NCBI GenBank assembly: GCA_963169045.1
Contig: CAUJDF010000044.1
Span: 434,001 to 498,000 of the forward strand
Direction of reading: 5' to 3'
DNA from: Myxococcota bacterium
Lineage (GTDB): Bacteria > Myxococcota_A > Bradymonadia > UBA7976 > UBA1532
DNA length: 64,000 nucleotides
Part shown: positions 1,892-7,362 of the stretch, in pieces
Numbering within the stretch: position 1 is the stretch's first letter
Layout of the letters: each line of letters begins with the position of its first letter
Notes under the pieces: generated by a model
What the model saw: the letters and a program-made list of their open reading frames with translations, nothing else
Databases searched by the model: none
Told to the model about the DNA's origin: nothing
Position numbers and translations under genes: made by a program

Positions 1892-2143
1892 TCAGCGGCG
1901 GCTCGCGAGCAGCGTACCGCCTTCGGTCGTCCGGTCGAGCCCCAGGCCGCGCGCGAAGCGGTCGACGAGCTCCACCGCCGCCGTCTCCGCCGCGAAGCGG
2001 TTCGACAACGACGGCAGCGGCATGTCGTTCACCGCTTGCGCCACCGCAGGGTCCAGCCGGGCGGGCTTCGCCTTCCGCGCCGGAGAGCGAGCCAGGGCGG
2101 TAGACGCGGCGAGGAGCGTGGCCAGGACGATGGTGCGCTTCAT
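1892..2143 (-). CDS. Small secreted protein of unknown function
   Basis: 83 aa beginning MKRTIVLATLLAASTALA, a clear Sec signal peptide with likely cleavage after ALA. The mature part is about 65 residues, basic at first and then with a short amphipathic stretch (VELVDRFARGLGLD). No known domain is recognised. The ATG at 2143 was chosen over a further-upstream start because it gives the signal peptide. It lies 64 nt upstream of yicC on the same strand. The gene is short and unsupported by homology I can name. Confidence 0.6.
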   Translation of the reverse strand: MKRTIVLATLLAASTALARSPARKAKPARLDPAVAQAVNDMPLPSLSNRFAAETAAVELVDRFARGLGLDRTTEGGTLLASRR

Positions 2144-2227
2144 GATGACCCCACCCGACAGGTGTTGTGATGTAGGTCTTATCACCACAAACGCCGGGTG
2201 GGCAAGACGAACTGCGCAGGAGGCGGT

Positions 2228-5050
2228 CTACTCGAGGCTCTCGAAGAAGGCGGCGTCGACGGAGCGGACGACCGGGCGGACCGTGGCGAGTCCGATGCCC
2301 TGGTCGTAGAGCAGGCGGGCGAGGCCGGCGCCGTCGACGAGGACGAGCGTCGGGCGGTCGGTGCGGGCGGCCTCGTCGCGGGCGTCCGGTCCGAACGTCC
2401 CAACGGTCAGGACGACGCCGCGGCTGGCGCCGAACTGCGCCAGACCCTCCCGCAGGGCGCGGACCGTGTCGCGGCCGATCGTCTTCCACGCGCGACGGGC
2501 GACGACGGCGCTGGTGAGGGCGGCGCTCCCCTGGTCGTAGGTGGCGAGCAGGGCGAGGTTGCCGCCCGCCTCGCGGTGCACGACCCGCACGTTCGCGTAC
2601 CCGATCTGCTCGAGCAGCATCACGACCACCTGTTCGAAGGCGGTGTCGCCCAGGCCCGCCACGCGCGCCAGCAGATCGCGGCGCACGATCTCGCGCTGCT
2701 CGGCGGTCGCCGCCTGGATCGTCTCCTCGAGTTGCAGGAACCGCTCGGACAGGCCCCACGCCGAGAGACCGACGGTCCCGTTGAAGTAGACGACGAAGGG
2801 CGCGCGCAGGCCCGCAGCGGACCGGCGCGCGTTCTCGGCGAGCAACGCGGCGCGCACGCCTCGGGACTCGGAGCCGCCACCAAGCGCGTCGATCGGCAGC
2901 GGACGCCCGCTCCGCTCCAGCGCGGCGAGCGCGCGCGACACGAGCACGTCGGTGGGAGCGATCTCGGGCAGCGCGGGACCGCGGCGCTCCGCCTCGGGCG
3001 CGGGCGCCGGCGCCGGCGTCTGGCGACGCTCGCGATAGGGCGCCTCGGTGACCGTCGCGGCCGCGGCCTGTACGGTCTCGACGGGCGACGGGGTCTGCTC
3101 GCGCCGCTCGGAGAACCGGGCGCGCAGCCGATCGCGCAGGCTCGGACGCTCGCCCGGCGCCGCGGCCGTCTCCGACGGGCTCGCCATCATCGGCTGAGCA
3201 GCGCGCGGCTCCGCCGGACGGTCGGCGGTCGACCGCTGCTCCTCACCCCGCGCCTCGGGGGGCCGCCCCTCGGGACGACGCTCCGCACGCGCGGCCTCGT
3301 CGCGGCGACCCTCGGCGGGACGGGACTCCGCCGTTCGCGCTTCCGGCGGACGACGCTCCTCGAGGCGCGGTGCCGACGAGCGCAGCTCGTCGCGCCGCGG
3401 CTCCGGACGGCGATCGTCGCGGCGCGGCTCCGGGCGCCGCTCGTCGCGCCGCGGCTCCTCGCGACGCGCCTCGGCCGGACGATGTTCTTCGCGCCGCGGC
3501 TCCTCGCGACGCCCTGCGTCGGGGCGGCGCTCTTCGCGAGCCGGCTCGGCCGGACGCACTTCCGCCGGGCGCCGCTCCTCGCGGCGCGGCTCCTCGCGGC
3601 GCCCCGCGTCAGGGCGCCGCCCCTCTCGAGCCGGCTCGGCCGGCCGCATCTCCGCCGGGCGCCGCTCATCGCGGCGAACCTCGGCCGGGCGGCGCTCGTC
3701 GCGGCGACCCTCGACCGGCGCGCGGCCGTCAGCCGGGCGCTCGTCCCGACGCGGCTCGCGCGTGAGCGCCTCGGCCGGTCGCCGCTCATCGACGCGCGCG
3801 GCCCGGACCTCGGCCACCGGCACCGTGCCCGTCTGGCGAGCCTCGTCCGGCGACGCATCGCCTCGACCGTAGCGGGCGCGCAGGCGCGCCTTGACGGAGG
3901 ACGGGTCCGCGACGCGGATCGCGGCGGGCGGCGGGGCGGCTTCGACGGCGGGCGGGGGCGGCGGCTCCATGGCCGCAGGCGCCGGCGGCGCGACGGCCTC
4001 GGGCTCGCGGGCTGGCGGCGCCGCTTCGCCCCGAGCGGCCCGGCGGGCCTTCAGTCGCTCGCCGATGGCCCGGCGCAGGTTGGCCTCGTCGCCCGCCTCC
4101 GGCTCGGGGGCTCTGGGCGCAGCCGCCCGCGGCGCCGGTTCGGCCTTCGGCGCCGCCGCCCGCGGCGCCGGTTCGGCCTTCGACGCCGCCGCCCGCGGCG
4201 CATCTTCGGTAAGGGGCGCCGCGGCCCGCGGCGCGTCTTCGGCTCTCGCTGCCGCCGCTGGAGGCGTCCGCGTCGGCTTCGTCGACGACCGCGCGGCGCG
4301 CGGCGCCTCCGCCTTGGTCGGCGCGGCGTCTGTGGGTCTCGCCAGCCGCGCCGTCGCGCGGTCCCCTTCGGGCGGCGCCGCCGACTCGGGGGCCCGCTCG
4401 GGCCGCGCCGCTGCGCGGGTCGCTTCGGGCGGCGCCGCCTCGGCGCGAGTCGGCGCTGCGTTCTCACGGCGACCACGACCGTCGCCGGCGGCGCTCTCGC
4501 GCTTCGTCGCCGGCGCCTGCTCGGCGGCGGGCTCGGACGCCTCCGCGTCCACGACCGCCGCCGCGCGCGAACGCATCCGCTCCCAGAGGCGCGAACGGAG
4601 ACGATCGCGATCCGGCGCCTGGGCAGCCACCGCCACCGCCTCCTCGACCGAGGTGGGCGCAGCGGACTCGCTGCCGACGAGGTCGGCCGCCCGCCGGCGC
4701 CGTCGCCGGCGCCGTCCGCCCTCGTCCTCCTCCTGGTCGTCGAAGTCGTCGAATTCCTCTTCGAGATCGATCTCTTCGGCGACCTCGACGACGGTCGGCG
4801 CCGCCTGACGACGCGGTGTCTCCGCCACGCTCTCCCCGAGGCCGTAGACGCCGCGGCGCACCTCGACGACCGGCTCGCGGCCGGACGGAGCGGAGCGGAT
4901 GGCATCGCGGAACGCGTCGAGCTCGGGTGTGCCGTTCGCGAACAGCCCGTCGCGCTCCCCGATGGCCAGAATCTTGCGCAGACTCAGCGGCCGCCCGCTC
5001 TCGCGCAGGACCCGTCGCGCCGCCTCAATCCAAGTCGCCGTCTCTGCCAT
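2228..5050 (-). CDS. HARE-HTH protein with Arg/Glu-rich middle and degenerate Mrr-like C-terminus
   Basis: 940 aa. Residues ~3-75 match a HARE-HTH/HB1 winged-helix module (TWIEAARRVLRESGRPLSLR, then DAFRDAIRSAP and a VVEVRRGVYGLGE wing). This DNA-binding domain is often joined to restriction-type or epigenetic enzymes. A strongly acidic stretch follows (~90-110), a tract rich in Arg (RRRRRRR), then several hundred residues rich in Ala, Pro, Arg and Glu with repeats of the type EERRPAEVR and EEPRREE, probably disordered. The last ~150 residues resemble an Mrr-type nuclease: FEQVVVMLLEQIGYANVRVV, then SRGVVLTVGTFGPDARDEA. Where active Mrr has GGVD and QxK, this protein has GGNL and VAR, so cleavage is unlikely. 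The ATG at 5050 has GAGGG seven bases upstream; a GTG lies two codons earlier. Confidence 0.8.
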   Translation of the reverse strand: MAETATWIEAARRVLRESGRPLSLRKILAIGERDGLFANGTPELDAFRDAIRSAPSGREPVVEVRRGVYGLGESVAETPRRQAAPTVVEVAEEIDLEEEFDDFDDQEEDEGGRRRRRRRRAADLVGSESAAPTSVEEAVAVAAQAPDRDRLRSRLWERMRSRAAAVVDAEASEPAAEQAPATKRESAAGDGRGRRENAAPTRAEAAPPEATRAAARPERAPESAAPPEGDRATARLARPTDAAPTKAEAPRAARSSTKPTRTPPAAAARAEDAPRAAAPLTEDAPRAAASKAEPAPRAAAPKAEPAPRAAAPRAPEPEAGDEANLRRAIGERLKARRAARGEAAPPAREPEAVAPPAPAAMEPPPPPAVEAAPPPAAIRVADPSSVKARLRARYGRGDASPDEARQTGTVPVAEVRAARVDERRPAEALTREPRRDERPADGRAPVEGRRDERRPAEVRRDERRPAEMRPAEPAREGRRPDAGRREEPRREERRPAEVRPAEPAREERRPDAGRREEPRREEHRPAEARREEPRRDERRPEPRRDDRRPEPRRDELRSSAPRLEERRPPEARTAESRPAEGRRDEAARAERRPEGRPPEARGEEQRSTADRPAEPRAAQPMMASPSETAAAPGERPSLRDRLRARFSERREQTPSPVETVQAAAATVTEAPYRERRQTPAPAPAPEAERRGPALPEIAPTDVLVSRALAALERSGRPLPIDALGGGSESRGVRAALLAENARRSAAGLRAPFVVYFNGTVGLSAWGLSERFLQLEETIQAATAEQREIVRRDLLARVAGLGDTAFEQVVVMLLEQIGYANVRVVHREAGGNLALLATYDQGSAALTSAVVARRAWKTIGRDTVRALREGLAQFGASRGVVLTVGTFGPDARDEAARTDRPTLVLVDGAGLARLLYDQGIGLATVRPVVRSVDAAFFESLE
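3340..3790. repeat. Internal repeats encoding an Arg/Glu/Pro-rich tract
   Basis: An imperfect tandem repetition within the HARE-HTH gene. On the plus strand, blocks such as GCCGGGCGCCGCTC and TCGCGCCGCGGCTCC recur many times. They encode repeated EERRPAE, EEPRREE and PRRDERR units on the minus strand. The boundaries are approximate. The repeats are imperfect and protein-coding, with no spacer structure. Confidence 0.6.
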
Positions 5051-5166
5051 CGTCACACCCTCGCCACCGTCCGGTCTGAATCGCGCGCCATCCTAGTTCC
5101 GGCCCGACCAGATTCCTACTGTTTCGGATCGGCGTCCCGCCCCCGCCTTGATGGCGAATCGGGCGC

Positions 5167-7362
5167 ATGCCACGATGCCTCGCCATGCCGAGGTTCGACC
5201 CCTTGCGACTGAGCCTCGCCGGTCGCTGGCGCGCGCACCTCGCCGACGACCGGCACGTCGGAGCGCTCACCGATCACGTCCACCTGCGCCTCGGGGCGCG
5301 TGGCCTCACCGCCCACCTCGAGGACGAGGACGTCGCCGCGCTGCTGACGGCGCTCGACGACGCGCTCGACGCGCTGGCGACGGGCGGCGAGGGAGAGACG
5401 GACGTGCCCCTGCCGCGCTCGCGACACACGCTCCGCCTGGCGCGGCGCGGCGGCGTCTCGCTCGTGTCTCTCGAGTCGGACGCCGGCCGGCCCATCGTTC
5501 GAGAAGAAGCCTTCGATGCCGGCACCTTCCGGCGCAGCGTGCGCGCCGCGGCCCGGGAGATCGTCGTGGCGCTCGGTCCGCGCGCGCCGGTCAGCTTGCG
5601 TGCGCTCCTGGCGAAGCCGCGCCGCCGTCGCGCCGAGGGCGGCACGACGACGCCACGGGCCGGCGGACAAGCGCGCCTCACCTTCGAGCTCGGTGACGCG
5701 CCGCCCGCCGACAGGCCGGCGGATCCGGGGGCGGACGCGGTGCGCCAGGTGGTGGTCCGGCTCGGCACCTCGCCGCCGCTCGTGGTCTCGCCGGTGGTGC
5801 CGCTCGACCTGCTCGAGGCGCTGACGCGGGCCGCGGAGACGGCGTTGAAGACGCGCGACTGGCCGAGGGGTCGGTGGGAGGTCGCCCTCGACGCGGAGGG
5901 CGCCTCACGGCTGGTCATCACCCGCGATGGCGCCGGCCTCGTGGTCCACCTCGCCGACCGCACCGGGCACGCGCGGCCGGGCCGCGTCCGGGTCGATCTC
6001 TGCGGCTTCGCCGTCGCGGCGGCTCGTTTCGCCGCGCACGTCGAGGTCGACCCGCACGAACGGCCCCGCCTCGCGCGCCTGCGGCGCTCCGCGCGCCATC
6101 TGCGTCGCTGGGCCGCCGCCCTCTCCGCCGGCGACTTCGCGACCGCCGACGCACCGCGACCGGCGCTCGTCCCCCCAGCGCCGGCCACGGTCAGCGCCGC
6201 CGATCCGCTGCCGGTCGACGGCCTCCGTCACCTCGCTTACCGCCGCCGCTGGCGCCGTCATGTCCCCGGCCTCGACGCCCGCCACATCTCAGTGATCGAC
6301 GAGCGCCTCGTCGTGGTGGGCCGCGACGGCCTGAGCGCCCTCGACGGCGCCACCGGGGCCACGCTGTGGTCGGCGCCGGGCGCGAGCCGAATCCCCAATA
6401 GTCCCGCTGAGTTGCGACTGTCCGCAGGCGGACGCCTCGAGCGCGTCGTGCTCGACGATGGCGCCGTCCGCTGGCATGCCCGGCCCTTCCGGGGCGACCG
6501 CCTGCCCACGCACGCCACGGCGGTGGACGATCGCATCGTCGTCGCCGCCGACGACGGCACCGTCGCCGCTCTCGACGCGGGCGCGGGACGGATCTGCTGG
6601 CGCGCGCGCACCTGGTTCGGCGCGGTGACCGGCTTCGCCGCCGCCAGCGGCGTCGTGTGGGCCAACGGCGAGGACGGGTTCGTCCACGCGTGGGAGGTCT
6701 CGACCGGGCGCCGGCTCTTCGCCGTCCGGCTGTGCGGCGAGCCTCAGGGCGCGCCCCACTTCGACGGACGCGGACTACTCTCGCTCGCCCACGTCGGGCC
6801 CGAGGCGGTCGGCCGGATCACCTGCCTGGACCCGCTCGATGGCGCCCATCGCTGGGCGCGGACGCTCGACGGCACGACCTCGGGGGATCCGCTCGTCGCC
6901 GGTTCGATTCTGCTGGTGACCGTCCACAGGCCGGAGGGCGCGCGGCTCCTGGCCGTCGACGTCGCGGACGGCGCCGCCCTCTGGGACGCGCCTGTCGGCG
7001 AGGACGTCCGCCCGCACCTTCCGCTGGCCGCCGACGGGCTCGCATTCGTCAAGGCCACCGACGGTCGTGTCCTCGCCCTCGACCTGCGCACCGGGAGCGA
7101 GCGCTGGTCGGCGCCCGCGGACGATCCCGGCGAGGTGCTCGTCCGCAATCCTCCGCCCGTACTGTGCCGTGGCCTGCTCCTCGTGCCCGGACAGACCATC
7201 CGGGCGCTCGCGCCCGGCGACGGTCGTCTCGTCACGGCGCTCGCCTGCGACGACCTCGTCCCGGAGTGGATGCACGTGTGGCCCGGCGGCGACCTGGTCG
7301 TCGCCGAGGGCGAGTCGATCACTCGCTACGTGCTCGGTGGACACCTCGCCGTCGTGGAGTGA
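5167..7362 (+). CDS. PQQ-like beta-propeller repeat protein
   Basis: 731 aa from the first ATG (a second in-frame ATG at 5185 begins MPRFDPLRLSL and is equally plausible). The C-terminal ~400 residues are a WD40/PQQ-like propeller: repeated blades of the form LDxxTGxxLWxxP, for example LDGATGATLWSAPG, LDAGAGRICWRAR and LDLRTGSERWSAP. The N-terminal ~320 residues form no domain I recognise. Unlike BamB, no signal peptide or lipobox is visible, so it is probably cytosolic. It faces the HARE-HTH gene divergently and ends 3 nt before the convergent metallophosphoesterase gene. Role unknown; the propeller suggests a binding scaffold. Confidence 0.8.
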   Translation: MPRCLAMPRFDPLRLSLAGRWRAHLADDRHVGALTDHVHLRLGARGLTAHLEDEDVAALLTALDDALDALATGGEGETDVPLPRSRHTLRLARRGGVSLVSLESDAGRPIVREEAFDAGTFRRSVRAAAREIVVALGPRAPVSLRALLAKPRRRRAEGGTTTPRAGGQARLTFELGDAPPADRPADPGADAVRQVVVRLGTSPPLVVSPVVPLDLLEALTRAAETALKTRDWPRGRWEVALDAEGASRLVITRDGAGLVVHLADRTGHARPGRVRVDLCGFAVAAARFAAHVEVDPHERPRLARLRRSARHLRRWAAALSAGDFATADAPRPALVPPAPATVSAADPLPVDGLRHLAYRRRWRRHVPGLDARHISVIDERLVVVGRDGLSALDGATGATLWSAPGASRIPNSPAELRLSAGGRLERVVLDDGAVRWHARPFRGDRLPTHATAVDDRIVVAADDGTVAALDAGAGRICWRARTWFGAVTGFAAASGVVWANGEDGFVHAWEVSTGRRLFAVRLCGEPQGAPHFDGRGLLSLAHVGPEAVGRITCLDPLDGAHRWARTLDGTTSGDPLVAGSILLVTVHRPEGARLLAVDVADGAALWDAPVGEDVRPHLPLAADGLAFVKATDGRVLALDLRTGSERWSAPADDPGEVLVRNPPPVLCRGLLLVPGQTIRALAPGDGRLVTALACDDLVPEWMHVWPGGDLVVAEGESITRYVLGGHLAVVE

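What the first reader, a model, noticed from the sequence alone, without database searches (positions are those of the whole stretch)
2228..5050. HARE-HTH protein fused by a long charged linker to a catalytically degenerate Mrr-like domain
HARE-HTH domains are known to pair with restriction-type nucleases and epigenetic enzymes. Here the C-terminal Mrr-like domain has GGNL instead of GGVD and VAR instead of QxK, so cleavage is unlikely, and the ~600-residue Arg/Glu/Pro repeat linker looks like a disordered DNA- or RNA-contacting rod. No methyltransferase or helicase gene lies nearby, so it is not an ordinary restriction system. A chromatin-like, DNA-reading role is possible.
Basis: partly seen in the sequence, partly recalled or inferred. 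Interest (0 to 1): 0.66.

Follow-up and report, generated by a model that had tools for sequence, protein, structure and literature searches.

The report
Core myxobacterial protein from dead restriction enzyme
This gene encodes a single-copy protein, inherited across much of a bacterial phylum (probably Myxococcota), that looks like a DNA-reading restriction enzyme that lost its cutting site, gained a long charged flexible tether and settled among housekeeping genes, which suggests an anti-virus nuclease was recycled into a DNA-binding cell component.

Summary
The gene is real. It encodes HARE-HTH, a 612-residue charged linker and a C-terminal Mrr/REase fold (AlphaFold pLDDT 91; Z 12.5 to AF1548) with the catalytic residues lost. 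A HARE1 profile finds it in 146 of 377 sampled genomes of the phylum, in 78 of 80 genomes of one family (41 of 41 genera) and 12 of 12 of another, nearly always single-copy. It lies among housekeeping genes (lipB, murA, ddl, gmk, yicC, topA). None of 37 aligned members keeps the D, Q or K of the active site. Thirteen related Mrr proteins keep all three; five of these have the same HARE-HARE-Mrr order with 30-43 aa linkers and look like type IV restriction enzymes. A tree separates the two groups on one branch (95/90). Best reading: a type IV restriction enzyme exapted into a core, non-cleaving DNA-binding protein. Active-site loss and vertical inheritance are shown; DNA binding and cellular role are inferred. 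The papers searched describe neither the degenerate family nor its ancestry.

The parts
2228..5056 (-). whole gene, HARE-linker-HARE2-pseudoMrr protein (941 aa from ATG5050; GTG5056 alternative start)
   Evidence: relatives of its C-terminal half in 121/282 phylum genomes
4838..5035 (-). HARE-HTH domain 1 (aa 6-71)
   Evidence: Pfam PF05066 28.0 bits; 24/25 aligned members match, best E 4e-20; best conserved part between two distant groups, 53% vs 26-29%
4721..4777 (-). acidic block EEIDLEEEFDDFDDQEEDE (aa 92-110)
   Evidence: sequence; acidic blocks recur in other members, e.g. DDDQPI(L/F)
4691..4714 (-). Arg8 tract (aa 113-120)
   Evidence: 1 of 500 composition shuffles reaches it; R6-R10 tracts in most members
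2939..4774 (-). low-complexity charged linker (aa 93-704), with basic amphipathic motifs at 4577-4600, 4055-4078, 3872-3895 and 3104-3139
   Evidence: composition; motif 5 copies vs 0.03 in shuffles; coordinates
3347..3723 (-). tandem DNA repeats encoding the RRDERRPAE/RREEPRREE repeats of the linker
   Evidence: TRF
2735..2938 (-). HARE-HTH domain 2, divergent (aa 705-772)
   Evidence: profile-profile match to HARE1, probability 90; two Pfam HARE stretches in the active relative L061
2657..2746 (-). long connecting helix (aa 769-798)
   Evidence: AlphaFold2 model
2309..2644 (-). degenerate Mrr / PD-(D/E)XK domain (aa 803-914)
   Evidence: Pfam Mrr_cat 62.6 bits; AF2 pLDDT 91; Z 12.5 AF1548, 11.8 AspBHI, 10.8 MspJI
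2486..2566 (-). degenerate catalytic motifs: GGNLAL (2549-2566) for GG(I/V)D, VVARRAW (2486-2506) for VQVKRW
   Evidence: alignment of 37 degenerate and 13 intact members

Best explanation
A modification-dependent (type IV-like) HARE-HARE-Mrr restriction enzyme, or a close kin of one, lost its nuclease active site early in this phylum, gained a long charged flexible linker between its two HARE winged-helix domains, and became a core, vertically inherited DNA-binding protein. Proposed working: HARE1 and HARE2 each contact duplex DNA, perhaps at modified bases or particular shapes. The pseudo-Mrr domain acts as a non-cleaving DNA clamp or dimerisation platform. The acid/Arg linker lets the two ends engage separate sites, or partner proteins and RNA, giving an architectural or transcription-regulating chromosome protein rather than a defence enzyme. 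SHOWN computationally: domain make-up, active-site loss in every member aligned, conservation, near-universal single-copy presence in two families, housekeeping synteny, and separation from active relatives. INFERRED: DNA binding, tethering, regulatory or architectural role, and direction of change (active to inactive).
For: Domains: (Mrr_cat in 30/30, HARE in 24/25). REase fold closest to AF1548 and to the modification-dependent enzymes AspBHI and MspJI. HARE2 is a second HARE. Catalytic D, Q and K absent in 37/37 members and present in 13/13 active relatives. Five active relatives share HARE-HARE-Mrr order with 30-43 aa linkers; PADLOC matches the two tested to mREase_IV and PDC-S02. The tree puts active and degenerate on two sides of one branch, 95/90. 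Core gene: 78/80 genomes of f13 (41/41 genera) and 12/12 of f3. Synteny: lipB beside it in f3 and f33, ddl beside it in f17, f20, f33 and f41, the metallophosphoesterase near it in f1 and f33. HARE1 is the best conserved part between f13 and f3, 53% vs 26-29%. HARE1 of an f13 member gave no plasmid hit; the C-terminal half hit only two Salmonella-derived 'restriction endonuclease' records in the phage set.
Against: No DNA-binding, expression or phenotype data. The tree is unrooted and some members (L062, L064, L072) sit on long branches, so a single loss is allowed but not proven. The window's own lineage has a divergent HARE1 (28 bits), and three of 13 genomes in its family gave no match (two of these under 90% complete). 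Net charge of HARE1 and of the pseudo-Mrr domain is near zero (+1, 0), so strong DNA affinity is not obvious from charge alone.
Confidence: 0.6

Rival explanations
1. RNA polymerase-associated factor: the HARE domain docks on RNA polymerase as the delta subunit (RpoE) of Firmicutes does, with the charged disordered region modulating nucleic-acid binding and the inactive REase fold serving as an RPB5-like module.
For: HARE-HTH also occurs in delta (the PF05066 control search rings in Bacillus subtilis). Foldseek on HARE1 gives weak matches to delta, 2krc and 8x6g. RPB5 is the next fold after restriction enzymes, Z about 9. Acid blocks and Arg tracts recur.
Against: The HARE1 profile finds no delta chain in the PDB by sequence even at E 10, whereas it matches HARE of active Mrr enzymes at 38-51 bits. 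RPB5 Z is below that of Mrr enzymes (8.9-9.4 vs 12.5) and may only show a shared fold.
Confidence: 0.15
2. RNA-binding or ribonucleoprotein protein: Arg tracts with Gly-Arg runs and the RD/RE repeats bind RNA, with HARE and pseudo-Mrr as accessory domains.
For: GGRRRRRRRRRGRGG-like tracts in many members.
Against: The folded domains are DNA-type modules; the best conserved part between distant groups is HARE1, not the tract; f3 members have Lys/Arg/Ser-rich or acidic linkers instead.
Confidence: 0.12
3. Nucleic-acid or nucleotide sensor of an anti-phage system: inactive REases act as sensors beside NTPases, and Pfam NA-iREase1 (NACHT-associated inactive REase) matches.
For: NA-iREase1 just over its cut-off in the window protein, 27.3-30.5 bits vs 27, and matched in 29/30 members. 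A sensor role for iREases is proposed in PMC12839542.
Against: Mrr_cat scores twice as high, and intact Mrr enzymes match NA-iREase1 too (31-57 bits), so the match is generic. No NACHT or defence gene found beside it; single-copy core gene in housekeeping synteny.
Confidence: 0.08
4. Still an active modification-dependent restriction enzyme using substitute residues.
For: Fold and HARE domains retained.
Against: All three catalytic residues gone in 37/37, with different replacements in each lineage; core-gene distribution is unlike restriction genes.
Confidence: 0.03

Closest known systems
Active HARE-HARE-Mrr proteins of the same phylum (L061, L053, L054, L056, L057; PADLOC mREase_IV / PDC-S02)
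   Same: Same domain order, homologous HARE1, HARE2 and Mrr domains
   Different: They keep the D and QxK residues, have 30-43 aa linkers, L053 adds Mrr_N, and those examined share no neighbours except between two genomes of one genus
Mrr-fold modification-dependent restriction enzymes: AspBHI, MspJI; also uncharacterised AF1548
   Same: C-terminal fold, Z 11.8, 10.8 and 12.5
   Different: No catalytic residues here; HARE in place of the reader domains of those enzymes
NA-iREase1 (PF22722), NACHT-associated inactive REase
   Same: A REase domain that has lost catalysis; match just over the cut-off
   Different: No NACHT NTPase, not in a defence context, Mrr_cat scores far higher
RNA polymerase delta (RpoE) and ASXL/HB1 HARE proteins
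   Same: N-terminal HARE domain followed by a long disordered charged region (architecture only; recalled, not tested for ASXL)
   Different: No sequence match to delta by profile; they lack a pseudo-Mrr C-terminus

Membership tests
HARE-HTH domain (PF05066) | Score over Pfam gathering cut-off | tested here: met
   28.0 vs 25.9 bits on the N-terminal piece; 23.8 in the full protein, below the cut-off
HARE-HTH domain (PF05066) | Winged-helix fold | tested here: met
   AF2 model H-H-H-E-E, core pLDDT mostly 79-88; weak Foldseek matches to winged-helix domains including delta
Mrr / PD-(D/E)XK superfamily (fold) | Mrr_cat over cut-off and REase fold | tested here: met
   62.6 vs 21 bits; Z 12.5 to AF1548
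Active Mrr nuclease | Catalytic D and QxK | tested here: not met
   Absent at the aligned positions in 37/37 members, present in 13/13 intact relatives
Type IV restriction system | Cleavage of modified DNA | not testable with these tools
   No assay; active-site loss makes it unlikely
Type IV restriction system | Patchy distribution, mobile or defence context | tested here: not met
   78/80 and 12/12 genomes in two families, housekeeping synteny; HARE1 no plasmid hit
RNA polymerase delta | Sequence relation of the HARE domain to delta | tested here: inconclusive
   No delta chain found by profile at E 10; weak fold matches only
NA-iREase1 | Linked or fused NACHT NTPase | tested here: not met
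   None in the protein, and none among the neighbours identified by Pfam or sequence

The most novel reading that the evidence does not exclude
An early bacterium of this phylum turned a modification-reading restriction enzyme into a core chromosomal protein, with two HARE winged helices joined by a long charged disordered tether and a dead nuclease domain as clamp: a bacterial chromatin-type reader or bridging protein made by domestication of a defence enzyme, in a phylum known for complex development.
Probability: 0.35. Interest if true: 0.8.

Novelty: new variant of a known kind. Interest (0 to 1): 0.62.

Why it matters
Exaptation of defence nucleases into core cell functions is much discussed but rarely documented with intact relatives, shared synteny and near-universal retention together. 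If the protein reads DNA modification or shape without cutting, it would be a bacterial counterpart to eukaryotic HARE chromatin readers, and it gives a concrete gene to delete and map by ChIP in cultivable members of the phylum. The HARE domain's ligand is still unsettled (PMC11037411), and a non-cleaving natural HARE-HARE protein would be a convenient tool to find it.

Tried and rejected
First C-terminal queries (window:2228-2900:-) were out of frame; redone in frame. The one genome-contig scan found a single relative, so distribution rests on the genome search within the phylum; presence outside the phylum could not be sampled. PDB sequence searches with both profiles gave only chance hits (ribosomal L35, VPS72). 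NCBIfam hits to ribosomal S5 are far under cut-off and were ignored. The paper that defined HARE-HTH (PMC3272235) is not held. Literature for HARE in myxobacteria: nothing relevant. Active-nuclease and NACHT-sensor readings were set aside as stated. The + strand ORF of 1004 codons was rejected as a GC-rich shadow ORF: the minus frame is the one that matches relatives.

Full report
OBSERVATION. The open reading frame lies on the minus strand of the window, 2228-5056, with ATG at 5050 giving 941 aa. Pfam finds HARE-HTH at aa 6-71 (28.0 bits in the isolated N-terminus, cut-off 25.9; 23.8 in the full protein, so only the isolated piece passes) and Mrr_cat at aa 803-914 (62.6 bits, E 5e-17). Between them are 612 residues with 20% Arg, 20% Asp+Glu, 22% Ala, 15% Pro and only 9% of V, I, L, M, F, Y and W. 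Part of this is encoded by tandem DNA repeats at 3347-3723.

A SECOND HARE DOMAIN. In a family alignment it carries a conserved pattern DN-RR---G-RPRF-----LTEWGL. Profile-profile comparison matches it to the N-terminal HARE with probability 90 and E 1.6e-6 for a single comparison. In the active relative L061 Pfam itself reports two HARE stretches. The architecture is therefore HARE1 - linker - HARE2 - helix - Mrr domain.

FOLD. AlphaFold2 on 30 family members gives the C-terminal 228 residues at pLDDT 91 and pTM 0.78. VIA-align 2 places the Mrr part nearest AF1548 (Z 12.5, rmsd 2.4, 108 aligned), AspBHI (Z 11.8) and MspJI (Z 10.8), with RNA polymerase subunit RPB5 following at about 9. The HARE1 model is of moderate confidence (mean 68.8, core blocks mostly 79-88, one at 63) with winged-helix elements and only weak PDB matches.

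ACTIVE SITE. In an alignment of 37 degenerate members and 13 intact relatives from the phylum, the positions of the catalytic D, Q and K are D/Q/K in all 13 intact proteins and in none of the 37 degenerate ones. The window has GGNLAL and VVARRAW. Replacements differ by lineage (H, Y/F or A for D; V/I/L/T for Q; R, L, G, V, H and others for K), so the loss is old. The second refutation condition (residues present in another register) was looked at on this alignment; no member shows a restored motif.

A PHYLUM-WIDE FAMILY. The C-terminal query finds relatives in 121 of 282 genomes spread over the phylum; this count includes ordinary Mrr enzymes. A HARE1 profile finds 146 of 377. In family f13 it is in 78 of 80 genomes and 41 of 41 genera; in f3 in 12 of 12; in the window's own family the C-terminal profile matches 10 of 13, some of these being ordinary Mrr proteins or fragments. 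Family-type matches are single-copy per genome. HARE1 of an f13 member had no match on 72,556 plasmids; the C-terminal half matched two Salmonella-derived records in the phage set, annotated restriction endonuclease.

SYNTENY. Relatives of the window's family keep the metallophosphoesterase, PQQ-repeat and CpXC-domain genes on one side and yicC, gmk and relA/spoT-like genes on the other. In f13 the neighbours are alaS, murB, dprA, topA and trmFO-like genes. In f3 they are murA, lipB and rpmE (murA, murB, alaS, dprA, topA, trmFO, lipB, rpmE and relA/spoT were named by reading the sequences). LipB lies directly beside the gene in f3 and in the distant f33 (Pfam LplA-B_cat for the f33 copy); D-Ala-D-Ala ligase lies beside it in members of f17, f20, f33 and f41; the metallophosphoesterase is near it in f1 and f33. 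This is the pattern of one ancient, vertically inherited gene, not of a mobile restriction system.

RELATION TO RESTRICTION ENZYMES. Five loci (L053, L054, L056, L057, L061) carry HARE-HARE-Mrr with an intact site and a short linker, 30-43 aa, against 83-612 aa in the degenerate set. PADLOC matches the two tested (L061, L053) to mREase_IV and PDC-S02. The genomes of L053, L054, L056 and L057 also hold a degenerate copy, so the two are paralogous lineages. The active loci share no conserved neighbours except between two genomes of one genus. A maximum-likelihood tree puts all active rows on one side of a branch and all degenerate ones on the other, support 95/90, one change; the tree is unrooted and three degenerate rows are long.

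LINKER. The linker is not featureless. Runs of six or more Arg occur in most members, beyond composition-preserving shuffles, often after an acidic block with the signature DDDQPI(L/F) in f13 and f41. The window's family adds a basic motif LKxRLxxR, 2-8 copies in the five members tested, against 0.01-0.04 expected. f3 members use Lys/Arg/Ser-rich or acidic linkers instead. HARE1 is the best conserved part between f13 and f3: 53% identity against 26% for HARE2 and 29% for the Mrr domain.

MECHANISM. The simplest account is exaptation: the DNA-reading and scaffolding parts of a type IV-like enzyme were kept while cleavage was lost and a long tether was added. Recognition of modified DNA by HARE in REase fusions is proposed in the literature (PMC10853773; PMC11037411), with the recognised base still debated. 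That the present protein binds DNA, and whether it bridges, reads modification or regulates transcription, is inference. The RNA polymerase rival is kept because HARE also occurs in delta, but sequence evidence favours the restriction-enzyme HARE lineage.

NOVELTY. HARE-REase fusions and inactive REases are both known. The core, single-copy, degenerate HARE-HARE-Mrr family with a long charged tether was not found in the literature searched, a library that lacks most subscription papers, including the founding HARE paper. It is scored as a new variant of a known kind.

Noticed in passing
window 2198-5212, + strand: A 1004-codon open frame runs antisense over the whole gene; typical GC-rich shadow ORF.
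   Followed up: partly
L058 8526-11132, L059 9266-11134, L060 8170-10140: In families f41, f17 and f20 a charged low-complexity tail lies also AFTER the Mrr domain (94-233 aa), with Arg tracts, i.e. the disordered region was extended to the C-terminus.
   Followed up: partly
L035 9586-12282 and L036 9791-12193 (own family): The linker holds 6-8 similar copies of (D)xRAALKARLAARRG, a basic amphipathic repeat that looks like a multivalent binding motif for an unknown partner.
   Followed up: partly
window 1892-2188, - strand: 98-aa ORF between the gene and yicC without any Pfam match; relatives have instead a large protein with a phosphodiester glycosidase (NAGPA) domain at this place (L034 8404-11070).
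   Followed up: partly
window 2309-2644 (model residues 78-208): The degenerate Mrr fold is also similar to RNA polymerase subunit RPB5 (Z about 9).
   Followed up: no
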